From Candidatus Peribacteria bacterium (GTDB lineage: Bacteria; Patescibacteriota; Gracilibacteria; Peribacterales; Peribacteraceae), in NCBI GenBank assembly GCA_943354555.1, contig CALRCM010000010.1:1-32040 (forward strand): DNA of 32,040 nt. The letters run 5' to 3'. The translations under genes and the position numbers were made by a program. The notes beneath the pieces were generated by a model, which saw only the letters and a list, made by a program, of their open reading frames with translations, was not told where the DNA came from and made no database searches. Below are positions 24,166-28,800 of the stretch, in pieces. How positions within the stretch are numbered: the first letter of the stretch is position 1; the number at the start of each line of letters is the position of its first letter.

Positions 24166-24684
24166 ATGCGCACCGCCCTTCTCATTCTGGCTCAGCAAGG
24201 ATTTCAGGATCTCGAGTACGAAGGTACGCGTAAGGGTCTTGAAGATGCAGGATTCGCCGTCGTTATCGGCAGCAAAGCAAAAGGCCCATGCGTGGGAAAA
24301 TTTGGTGAGAAGATCGATGCCACTGTCGCATTGAAAGACGTTGTCGTAGAAGATTACGACCGTATTGCGTTCATCGGCGGGCCGGGGGCTTTTGCTTATG
24401 CATCCGATGCAGATGCTCTCAAGATTGCCAACGATACAGTTAGGGCTGGTATTCCTATCGGAGCAATCTGCATCGCGCCGACGATCCTTGCCAAGGCTAG
24501 AGTTCTCGATGGAAAAAAAGCAACGACGTGGGATGATGGACAGGGAACGCAGATCGCATTGCTTGAAAAAATGGGTGCGATCTATACAGGAGATTCTGTT
24601 ACGGTCGATGGATTGATTGTTACGGGAAATGGACCAGAGGCAGCGGAGGAATTTGGGAGGGCGTTTGTTTCGATTGCACATTAA
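24166..24684 (+). CDS. DJ-1/PfpI family protein
   Basis: ALLILAQQGFQDLEYEGTRKGLEDAGF; IAFIGGPGAFAY; nucleophile-elbow region IGAICIAPTILAKARVLDGKKATTW. Confidence 0.9.
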   Translation: MRTALLILAQQGFQDLEYEGTRKGLEDAGFAVVIGSKAKGPCVGKFGEKIDATVALKDVVVEDYDRIAFIGGPGAFAYASDADALKIANDTVRAGIPIGAICIAPTILAKARVLDGKKATTWDDGQGTQIALLEKMGAIYTGDSVTVDGLIVTGNGPEAAEEFGRAFVSIAH

Positions 24685-24687
24685 AAA

Positions 24688-24711
24688 ACCCCACAAGGGG
24701 GTGGGGTTCGA
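24688..24711 (+). terminator. Hairpin after the DJ-1/PfpI gene, possibly bidirectional
   Basis: AACCCCAC-AAGGGG-GTGGGGTT; A-tract on the 5' side gives a U-tract on the minus strand. Confidence 0.55.
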
Positions 24712-24841
24712 TTTCCAGTGACTACCAACGGCTCGACAGAGCAATTTTAACCCCCTTAAAACGCAAAATCAAGTATTGGTTGTACGTTTGTACACCTGGT
24801 AAATTTGTAATTTATGGCTAATTCTAGCCAAGCCTTATCGT

Positions 24842-24911
24842 GGGGCGCGGCTAGGTGGCGCCGACGGCTCGACACCTGTCGGCTGGGGTTCGATTCCCCC
24901 GCGCTCCACCA
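24842..24911 (+). ncRNA. tRNA-like structured element with encoded CCA (non-canonical; not assignable to an isoacceptor)
   Basis: GGGGCGC pairs GCGCTCC (7 bp; 9 bp with flanking GT/AC), TGGGG-TTCGATT-CCCCC T-arm-like hairpin with consensus T-loop, 3' ACCA. Replacing the D and anticodon arms: an 11-nt linker and an 8-bp hairpin GCCGACGG-CTCGACAC-CTGTCGGC. Confidence 0.45.
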
Positions 24912-24932
24912 AGGCTTGATAAATATTAATCG

Positions 24933-26156
24933 TTAATCCTCTATCTTCCCAAACTCCTGCGACCACAGATCACCGAAGATGCCGATGCCAATTTCGTCGA
25001 AGGCGCCGCTCAGGATATTTTTCCGGTGATTCTCAGATTTCATCCAGTCGTCCATCACCTGCGTGGGGGTCAGCTGTCCCTTGGCAATATTTTCTCCGAG
25101 AGCGAAGCGTGCGAGACATGCACACTGGTCACCGGATTTGATCATGATGTAGTCCGGTCCAATCTCGCGGCGGTTTTGCAGCAGATCCATGGTGTTTACC
25201 GTAGTTGTGCACGGGCAGAGAGCTGCATTTTTGTCGAGGTAGCCTGCATCACGGATACGGTCGACGTAGGAAAGTCCCTCCGGCGTAAAATGACTGAAGT
25301 ACCCGCGCTTATGCATGTCTTTTGAGTGAAGCTGTGCCGCATCCGCGAGGAGTGCGTTGTGCCGGAGGATATGGAGGCCTGCATTACGACGTTCTGCATT
25401 CACGCGTTGCAGGATTTCGAGACGTACGGCGTCGAGCGTGTTGCTGCGTTTTGCAAGATTCATTCGCAGAGATTGTTTTACTGTTGACGGCCGCAGAGCG
25501 TAGGCCGATCTCTGCGGAGGGCTGACCGACTGCGACTGCGTAGGTGACGGGTTTGGTGCCGGATTCGAGGTCAGGATCGGCGGTAGTGATTGCTCCGCGC
25601 GCTTGAGTTCTTTTTTCATGAGCGTGGTACTTACGGATTTTCCCTGAAAATTAGCCTTGAGAATTTTTGCGATACCGTCGACGGCTTCGTCTTGTGTTAC
25701 ACGGGCATCTGGATGCAGGAGCAGAGGGGAATTTTTATTACGGAATATTCCTGTCTTTTGCGCGATTCCTACATAGTTTCGATAGGGGGTGTTTGCTGGG
25801 ACATCGGTAAATGGAAACGGAATATTCGTTTCGAGTGCAAATGTGACGGTAAGCATCTTTAAAAACTCTCCCCGGCTTACGGATCCATGCGGATGAAGGA
25901 GTCCATTTGTAGGATCTGGACCGATCATGTTCATGCGCACGGCGGTCTTTAGGTAGGGGATGTACCACTCACCCTCGAGAACATCGGGGTAGAGCAAAGG
26001 CTGGTCGTCGAGTAGGAGTGGAATGTCGGCGCTATTCAGGAGAAGCATCGTAGCTTCGGCCCGTTTCAGGTACAGAGGCGGCCGGTCCAGAACAGACGCT
26101 ATAGGCGCAGAAGTGCCTAGTAATGTAGCGGTGATGATGGCGAGAGTGCGGAGCAT
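24933..26156 (-). CDS. Secreted SLH-repeat + CAP (SCP/PR-1) domain protein
   Basis: Signal-like N-terminus; SLH-like repeats (YPDVLEGEWYIPYLKTAVRMNMIGPD...VSRGEFLKML, FTDVPANTPYRNYVGIAQKTGIF); CAP motifs LHSKDMHKRGYFSH, GENIAKG, WMKSENHRKNILSGAFDEIGIG. Confidence 0.9.
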   Translation of the reverse strand: MLRTLAIITATLLGTSAPIASVLDRPPLYLKRAEATMLLLNSADIPLLLDDQPLLYPDVLEGEWYIPYLKTAVRMNMIGPDPTNGLLHPHGSVSRGEFLKMLTVTFALETNIPFPFTDVPANTPYRNYVGIAQKTGIFRNKNSPLLLHPDARVTQDEAVDGIAKILKANFQGKSVSTTLMKKELKRAEQSLPPILTSNPAPNPSPTQSQSVSPPQRSAYALRPSTVKQSLRMNLAKRSNTLDAVRLEILQRVNAERRNAGLHILRHNALLADAAQLHSKDMHKRGYFSHFTPEGLSYVDRIRDAGYLDKNAALCPCTTTVNTMDLLQNRREIGPDYIMIKSGDQCACLARFALGENIAKGQLTPTQVMDDWMKSENHRKNILSGAFDEIGIGIFGDLWSQEFGKIED

Positions 26157-28197: not shown

Positions 28198-28800
28198 TCA
28201 GGCCGGATCATTTGAGACGCCACGCGTGGCGTCTCTACGGGGATGCATCTGCATGAAATTCCGATCACGCTCCCATGTTCTTGGATTTTCCCGAATATAC
28301 GATCGTATATTTTCCAATGCACGGTCAGATCGAATAATGTGATCATAGAATCGGGTTTGCCATCCGAAATCATGGTGACCAATTTCATGAATGCGTTTTG
28401 TGGATGCGCCTTTAATGCGTCCGATGATAGAACCGATGGAAGATGGTTTTAATCGGGGAAGGGGGATGATTGTCGCGACATCGGTTGAGACGGCACAACG
28501 TGCCGTCTCTACAGGATCCACATTATCCCATGGGCAAATTTCTATGATGGCGTGCATATGATTCGGCATCACCACCCATTCATTCAGGATGATGTTTTGC
28601 CGAAGGCACGATGTGCGTGCAATTTCCTGTGCGACAATGCACCCCGCATCCGACAATCCCATTACCCCACTACGGATTTCTCCGAACCATGGATACTGGC
28701 CATGCGTACACGCCGTCACGAAATACATCCCCGCCTCCGCGTAATCCCGCCCTATGAGGCGCGCGGATTCCACCCGATAGCGATCGCGAAACATGGTCAT
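28198..28800 (-). CDS. REP-associated tyrosine transposase (RAYT; IS200/IS605-like Y1 transposase)
   Basis: Y1_Tnp features: AGMYFVTACTHGQ, NEWVVMPNHMHAIIEI (HUH), SIGSIIGRIKGASTKRIHE, WQTRFYDHIIRSDRALENIRSYIRENPRTWERD. Confidence 0.9.
   Translation of the reverse strand: MTMFRDRYRVESARLIGRDYAEAGMYFVTACTHGQYPWFGEIRSGVMGLSDAGCIVAQEIARTSCLRQNIILNEWVVMPNHMHAIIEICPWDNVDPVETARCAVSTDVATIIPLPRLKPSSIGSIIGRIKGASTKRIHEIGHHDFGWQTRFYDHIIRSDRALENIRSYIRENPRTWERDRNFMQMHPRRDATRGVSNDPA
28214..28235. repeat. REP-like palindrome copy 2, inside the RAYT ORF C-terminus
   Basis: GAGACGCCACGCGTGGCGTCTC; encodes RRDATRGVSN before the stop. Confidence 0.85.
28487..28509. repeat. REP-like palindrome copy 3, internal to the RAYT ORF
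   Basis: GAGACGGCACAACGTGCCGTCTC; encodes VETARCAVST. Confidence 0.85.

What the first reader, a model, noticed from the sequence alone, without database searches (positions are those of the whole stretch)
24842..24911. tRNA-like RNA with encoded CCA and T-arm but no recognisable D-arm and an 8-bp 'anticodon-position' hairpin
The 70-nt element has a perfect acceptor-like stem (GGGGCGC/GCGCTCC, one G.T), a T-loop TTCGATT on a GC stem, and 3' ACCA. Only 35 nt separate acceptor and T-arm. They form an 11-nt linker plus an 8-bp, 8-nt-loop hairpin (GCCGACGG-CTCGACAC-CTGTCGGC), unlike a 5-bp/7-nt anticodon arm. The GGGG...CUCCACCA ends and missing D-stem recall the tRNA-like domain of tmRNA, with the mRNA-like part absent. 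Possibilities: a decayed or minimal tmRNA, a degenerate tRNA left as an integration scar, or a new aminoacylatable small RNA. It lies exactly where the spc operon has been interrupted.
Basis: partly seen in the sequence, partly recalled or inferred. Interest (0 to 1): 0.72.

Follow-up and report, generated by a model that had tools for sequence, protein, structure and literature searches.

The report
tRNA mimic with antisense partner RNA
The odd 70-base element belongs to a real, previously unnamed family of small tRNA look-alikes in ultra-small environmental bacteria; each carries the signals for charging with alanine, usually sits next to a tiny antisense RNA matched to it, and appears from its promoter to be switched on by stress, so it looks like an RNA-only switch acting on protein synthesis.

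Summary
The element at 24842-24911 is real, but two things were misread or missed. First, it has a D-arm: a 3-bp stem with an AGGT loop (24850-24859), so it is a compact cloverleaf with an 8-bp, 8-nt-loop anticodon arm. Second, it has a partner: a small RNA on the opposite strand (about 24738-24681), with its own promoter and terminator, whose 5' end pairs with the loop and the whole 5' strand of that arm.

I collected 96 distinct family members, essentially all in Patescibacteria, up to six per genome. G3.U70 (alanine identity) is kept in 95/96 and A73 in 96/96 while acceptor pairs 4-7 covary. In 75/96 loci a flank is complementary to that locus's own arm over >=9 nt (4.5% for arms of other loci), with the partner divergent, convergent or tandem.

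In the window's family most copies carry the LexA box that also precedes lexA. Sister species have a normal tmRNA, so this is not a decayed tmRNA.

Best reading: a stress-induced, alanine-charged tRNA mimic restrained by a constitutive antisense RNA, with the logic of tisB/istR but an RNA effector. Anatomy is strongly supported; charging and the effect on translation are inferred; no expression data exist.

The parts
24842..24911 (+). tRNA-like RNA (70 nt, compact cloverleaf, encoded CCA)
   Evidence: ARAGORN tRNA-???; family with covariation; minimum-energy cloverleaf
24842..24848 (+). acceptor stem, 5' strand (pairs with 24901-24907; third pair is G3.U70)
   Evidence: G3.U70 in 95/96 members, pairs 4-7 covary
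   Evidence: fold; 3-5 bp D-stem in 82/96 members
24860..24883 (+). anticodon-position arm, 8 bp with 8-nt loop
   Evidence: helix 2, 7 of 8 pairs with changes on both sides
24868..24875 (+). 8-nt loop CTCGACAC; family consensus N-U-Y-G-W-S-A-N (U-turn type)
   Evidence: loop counts
24885..24899 (+). T-arm GGGG-TTCGATT-CCCC
   Evidence: invariant columns
24901..24911 (+). acceptor 3' strand, discriminator A73 (24908) and encoded CCA
   Evidence: A73 96/96, CCA 84/96
24829..24836 (+). 5' arm of outer inverted repeat, CAAGCCTT (leader)
   Evidence: precursor folds with z = -5.15; similar outer repeats flank most members
24911..24918 (+). 3' arm of outer inverted repeat, AAGGCTTG, starting at the last A of CCA
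24781..24794 (.). LexA box TGTACGTTTGTACA
   Evidence: 16 sites of the pattern in the genome, none for the reversed control pattern; same box precedes lexA
24681..24738 (-). antisense small RNA (approximate ends); its 5' end pairs over 15 bp with the loop and 5' strand of the anticodon-position arm
24728..24738 (-). antisense segment: reverse complement of ACGGCTCGACA of the tRNA-like arm and loop
24744..24772 (-). sigma-70-type promoter of the antisense RNA, TTGATT-17-TAAAAT
   Evidence: 70/72 family loci have one
24686..24709 (-). intrinsic terminator of the antisense RNA
   Evidence: 59/72 family loci

Best explanation
The locus is a two-RNA module. RNA 1 (24842-24911) is a compact tRNA mimic with the features needed for charging with alanine: G3.U70, A73, CCA, an intact T-arm and a mini D-arm. 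RNA 2 (about 24738-24681, minus) is a small, probably constitutive antisense RNA that meets the exposed U-turn loop of RNA 1 and then displaces the 5' strand of its anticodon-position arm, so unfolding it or marking it for decay. RNA 1 is under stress control: a LexA box in the window's family, 11-bp-phased direct repeats of OmpR/PhoB type in other families. In unstressed cells RNA 2 keeps RNA 1 inactive. Under DNA damage or another stress RNA 1 outruns its antisense, is alanylated, and acts on the translation machinery (AlaRS, EF-Tu, ribosomal A site; possibly miscoding or frameshifting), slowing growth. Shown by comparison: RNA 1 structure and alanine identity; a matched antisense with promoter and terminator; a LexA box near the promoter. 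Inferred: expression, charging, duplex formation in the cell, and the effect on translation.
For: Structure and covariation. G3.U70 95/96 and A73 96/96 while pairs 4-7 change. Own-arm complementarity of at least 9 nt in 75/96 loci against 4.5% for other loci's arms. Pairing covers the loop (first six positions in at least 73/75 loci) and a median of 9 nt of the 5' strand, hardly the 3' strand. Antisense promoter in 70/72 loci against 12 expected, terminator in 59/72 against 6, the -10 ending right before the antisense segment. Partner convergent (43), divergent (21) or tandem (8). Window pair: 15 bp, -29.5 kcal/mol; much weaker with the genome's other copy. lexA of the same genome is preceded by the same box. 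11-bp repeats in 16/67 other loci against 0.4 expected. No conserved protein neighbour. tisB/istR-1 of E. coli has the same logic (PMC8145889, PMC2826370).
Against: No expression, charging or phenotype data. 21 of 96 loci lack a match of 9 nt or more and several have none that is convincing. A growth-slowing effect is inferred only from the wiring. In the window's genus the LexA box lies about 60 bp upstream of the RNA and no clear -10 of its own was found.
Confidence: 0.6

Rival explanations
1. A specialised decoding tRNA: the 8-nt loop carries a four-base anticodon (CGAC, UGAC, UGUC, CGUC, UGAG and others) and the alanyl-RNA reads particular codons or shifts frame under stress in a programmed, useful way.
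For: A U33-like U and an A37-like A flank four bases in the loop (position 2 is U in 83/92, position 7 is A in 92/92); ARAGORN reads a 4-nt anticodon; alanine identity is nearly invariant.
Against: The 8-9 bp arm and lack of a variable region put the loop at an unusual distance; the four bases differ between copies of one genome; the loop sequence tracks the antisense RNA and fits the UNR U-turn of antisense targets.
Confidence: 0.15
2. A non-translational alanine donor, for example for FemX-type peptidoglycan cross-bridges, adjusted by antisense RNA.
For: FemAB-type genes are abundant in the class (270 of 288 genomes), and one lies next to the copy in G003 with a homologue next to the copy in G033; dedicated cell-wall tRNAs are known for glycine in staphylococci (own knowledge).
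Against: FemAB is nearly universal in the class, so its presence does not discriminate; no general neighbourhood link; LexA control and antisense restraint are not expected for a cell-wall supplier.
Confidence: 0.1
3. A decayed or minimal tmRNA.
For: Weak tmRNA covariance score (22.8 bits), shared GGGG...CUCCACCA ends, alanine identity, SmpB present in the genome.
Against: Full tmRNA genes coexist in the same genus and most of the class; the element has its own anticodon-position arm and no coding part; the genome's ordinary tRNA-Ala scores higher with the tmRNA model than the element does.
Confidence: 0.03
4. A DNA-level feature: a recombinase attachment site or tRNA integration scar, the repeated loop being a crossover core.
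For: The loop sequence recurs in the flank as a direct repeat in many loci.
Against: The repeats are only 50-130 bp away, the partner can lie in either orientation and carries promoter and terminator; G3.U70 and the T-loop are conserved as RNA features; no conserved protein neighbour.
Confidence: 0.02

Closest known systems
tmRNA (SsrA), tRNA-like domain
   Same: Alanine identity G3.U70, A73, encoded CCA, T-arm, reduced D region
   Different: No coding part, complete anticodon-position arm with 8-nt loop, coexists with true tmRNA, has an antisense partner
tRNA-Ala
   Same: Acceptor identity, T-arm, CCA
   Different: 70 nt, mini D-arm, 8-bp anticodon stem, 8-nt loop without an alanine anticodon, no variable region; the genome has ordinary tRNA-Ala as well
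tisB/istR-1 of E. coli
   Same: LexA-controlled effector next to a constitutive antisense RNA ending in a terminator
   Different: The effector here is a tRNA-like RNA and not a peptide mRNA; partner position and orientation vary
RNA-RNA toxin-antitoxins (SdsR/RyeA type; CreTA)
   Same: Both components are RNAs; CreT toxins sequester tRNAs (PMC8501985)
   Different: No CRISPR involvement; the effector is itself tRNA-shaped; the partner acts by direct pairing with it
Allo-tRNAs and other bacterial tRNAs of unusual cloverleaf (own knowledge)
   Same: Unusual arm lengths
   Different: Those keep ordinary 7-nt anticodon loops and have no known antisense RNA

Membership tests
tmRNA (RF00023) | score above the family's gathering threshold | tested here: not met
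   22.8 bits against 47
tmRNA (RF00023) | mRNA-like tag reading frame and pseudoknots between the tRNA-like halves | tested here: not met
   only 70 nt between the matched ends; ARAGORN finds no tmRNA here
tmRNA (RF00023) | alanine identity in the acceptor stem | tested here: met
   G3.U70 in 95/96
tmRNA (RF00023) | SmpB binding | not testable with these tools
   SmpB gene present in the genome
canonical tRNA | 5-bp anticodon stem with 7-nt loop | tested here: not met
   8-bp stem, 8-nt loop
canonical tRNA | cloverleaf with acceptor, D-arm, T-arm and CCA | tested here: met
   including a mini D-arm
canonical tRNA | aminoacylation and decoding | not testable with these tools
   needs biochemistry
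RNA-RNA (type VIII) toxin-antitoxin | effector RNA with an adjacent RNA complementary to it | tested here: met
RNA-RNA (type VIII) toxin-antitoxin | effector RNA inhibits growth and the partner RNA relieves it | not testable with these tools
   needs an experiment
tisB/istR-like SOS antisense module | effector promoter region carries a LexA box | tested here: met
   20 loci with the box; lexA carries the same box
tisB/istR-like SOS antisense module | effector is a small membrane peptide mRNA | tested here: not met
   the effector is a tRNA-like RNA

The most novel reading that the evidence does not exclude
A new class of RNA-only stress switch: an alanine-charged tRNA mimic that blocks or miscodes translation when released, neutralised by a dedicated antisense RNA that recognises its anticodon-like loop, with copies in one genome kept apart by different loop sequences.
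Probability: 0.4. Interest if true: 0.92.

Novelty: categorically new. Interest (0 to 1): 0.85.

Why it matters
No Rfam 15 family covers it, and I know of no natural tRNA-like RNA controlled by its own antisense RNA. If true, a charged tRNA mimic can be a regulated effector and not only a translation adaptor, and the SOS response (and perhaps another stress circuit) of Patescibacteria is wired to it. Both RNAs are short, so charging, pairing and effect can be tested in vitro and in a laboratory strain.

Tried and rejected
tmRNA remnant: rejected because tmRNA coexists. Alanine tailing by RqcH: no NFACT_N protein over its cut-off in 288 genomes of the class. Cell-wall donor: FemAB is nearly universal, so presence does not discriminate. 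Phage origin: a pattern scan of viral contigs gave only matches below 33 bits, several of them ARAGORN-called tmRNAs. Presence outside Patescibacteria: such pattern matches were tmRNAs or low-scoring, with one exception, L228. The first genome contigs pattern was wrong (spacing and one missing T-loop base) and found nothing. A second contact of the antisense RNA with the T-loop: clear in the window's genus (24703-24713) but not kept in other families, so not relied on. The first automatic loop assignment was unreliable and was replaced; a few loops there (L026, L118, L098, L129) are still misplaced, which weakens rather than inflates the statistics.

Full report
What is there. The 70-nt element lies exactly where stated, 24842-24911 on the plus strand. 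ARAGORN finds the same boundaries and labels it tRNA-??? with a four-base anticodon cgac. Rfam gives nothing over threshold in the window; at relaxed settings the best match is tmRNA at 22.8 bits, gathering score 47. The unconstrained minimum-energy fold is a small cloverleaf: acceptor stem, a 3-bp D-stem with loop AGGT (24850-24859), an 8-bp arm with an 8-nt loop, a T-arm, and ACCA. With leader and trailer an outer 8-bp stem forms directly outside the RNA (24829-24836 with 24911-24918), and the precursor folds far better than shuffles (z = -5.15).

It is a family. The same genome has a second copy, 77% identical. Relatives were found by DNA and with a covariance model, R1. I gathered 96 distinct sequences. 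Strong-scoring members occur in about 50 of 288 genomes sampled from the class, up to six per genome (my count), and in other Patescibacteria lineages. Named records are Peribacteria, Peregrinibacteria, Gracilibacteria, Magasanikbacteria and Uhrbacteria. Matches of the search pattern outside Patescibacteria were true tmRNAs or low-scoring, with one exception (L228). Canonical tRNA-Ala genes of 75-77 nt also score with R1 and were set aside by length and by ARAGORN.

Selection on RNA structure. On 20 aligned members 92.4% of cells pair, 11 of 19 pairs show double changes, and the covariation score is 0.455, against 0.139 when 3' letters are shuffled and at most 0.105 when partners are slid. Across 96 members the third acceptor pair is G.U in 95, the discriminator is A in 96 and CCA is encoded in 84, while acceptor pairs 4-7 change freely between pair types. 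G3.U70 with A73 is the established identity set for alanyl-tRNA synthetase (own knowledge), so charging with alanine is the natural inference. The loop consensus is N-U-Y-G-W-S-A-N. A D-stem of at least 3 bp around a GG-containing loop occurs in 82/96, against about 45% in a permissive shuffle control.

The partner RNA. In many loci the loop and the 5' strand of the anticodon-position arm recur in the flank as a direct repeat of 8-19 nt. Read on the opposite strand this is an antisense segment at the 5' end of a small transcription unit: sigma-70 promoter, antisense segment, intrinsic terminator. In an unselected test, 75 of 96 loci had at least 9 nt of complementarity to their own arm within 260 bp, against 4.5% when arms from other loci were tried on the same flanks. 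The partner is convergent downstream in 43, divergent upstream in 21 and tandem downstream in 8. That freedom argues for pairing between two RNAs and against one cis structure. Among loci with a match, 70 of 72 have a promoter with at most 4 mismatches (12.3 expected from shuffles), 59 have a terminator (6 expected), and the -10 element mostly ends immediately before the antisense segment. Duplex energies average -46 kcal/mol for matched and -30.5 for swapped pairs, and the own partner ranks first in 55 of 75 (this set was chosen for complementarity, so it illustrates rather than proves). Pairing covers most of the loop and a median of 9 nt of the 5' strand but hardly the 3' strand, as if the antisense RNA enters at the loop and displaces one side of the arm. 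In the window the antisense RNA runs from about 24738 to 24681 on the minus strand, with promoter TTGATT-17-TAAAAT and a terminator at 24709-24686. It pairs over 15 bp with GCCGACGGCUCGACA and much more weakly with the genome's other tRNA-like RNA.

Regulation. A palindrome TGTACGnnnGTACA lies at 24781-24794. The pattern occurs at 15 other places in this genome, and the reversed control pattern at none. The LexA-domain match of this genome begins 43 bp from one of these sites, and its promoter region holds a second, near-identical box. I therefore read the box as the LexA box of this lineage. Other sites precede dprA, comM, a metallo-beta-lactamase-fold gene and topA, or lie near carA and a ComF-like gene; a dinB-type polymerase gene follows lexA. 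Twenty tRNA-like loci of the window's family carry the box, most at -24 to -27 overlapping a possible -10 (TACGAT), and in the window's genus at about -58 to -71. In other families the region upstream of the tRNA-like RNA has direct repeats of TTTAAG/TGTCAG type with an 11-bp period (16 of 67 loci, 0.4 expected, none in a downstream control region), which resembles OmpR/PhoB-type sites; that regulator is not identified.

What it does. The wiring matches tisB/istR-1 of E. coli, where LexA controls the effector and an antisense RNA restrains it (PMC8145889, PMC2826370). Here the effector is a tRNA-like RNA with strictly kept alanine identity. The simplest mechanism is that stress lets the mimic escape its antisense RNA, become alanylated and act on the translation machinery. 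Expression, charging and effect are inferred. Whether the mimic blocks, miscodes, shifts frame or only sequesters factors cannot be decided from sequence. RqcH-type alanine tailing is unlikely because no NFACT protein over the cut-off was found in the class. A cell-wall alanine donor cannot be excluded because FemAB proteins are nearly universal there. No protein neighbour is conserved.

Limits. All genomes are draft assemblies; promoters, terminators and RNA ends are predictions; loci are phylogenetically related, so shuffled controls overstate independence, although the partner's changing position and orientation and the locus-specific matching are hard to explain by descent alone. Some loci have no recognisable partner. 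The paper library holds only open-access papers, and full-text searches found no description of such an RNA; absence there is not proof of novelty.

Noticed in passing
window 28198-28800 (-): IS200-like Y1 transposase gene (REP-associated type by look) between secY and the adenylate kinase gene.
   Followed up: no
window 24166-24684 and 24933-26156: A DJ-1/PfpI gene and a CAP/S-layer-homology gene sit with the two-RNA module between the S5 and L15 genes, splitting the spc operon.
   Followed up: partly
L001 and L018: Two genera share the same genomic site (S5 and neighbouring genes) for the module, yet the antisense gene is upstream in one and downstream in the other and the loops differ.
   Followed up: partly
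L022 and L121 (both genome G004): Two tRNA-like copies of one species are each interrupted at nearly the same point of the acceptor 3' strand by different short palindromic inserts.
   Followed up: no
L048, L051, L053, L054, L056, L057: LexA-box neighbours in this genome include DNA-uptake genes (dprA, comM, a ComEC-like metallo-beta-lactamase-fold gene, a ComF-like gene), suggesting that SOS and competence are joined in this lineage.
   Followed up: partly
upstream of copies outside the window's family, e.g. L119, L149, L150: 11-bp-phased TTTAAG/TGTCAG repeats, an OmpR/PhoB-like operator of unknown regulator.
   Followed up: partly
genome G000: No tmRNA over the Rfam cut-off in the window's own assembly although SmpB is present; probably an assembly gap since sister species have one.
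   Followed up: partly
L228: A strong family member (53.3 bits) in a contig labelled Nitrospirota; possibly mis-binned, not checked.
   Followed up: no
L129, L139, L157: These copies have 7-nt loops ending in CGAA in place of the 8-nt UYGWSA loop.
   Followed up: no
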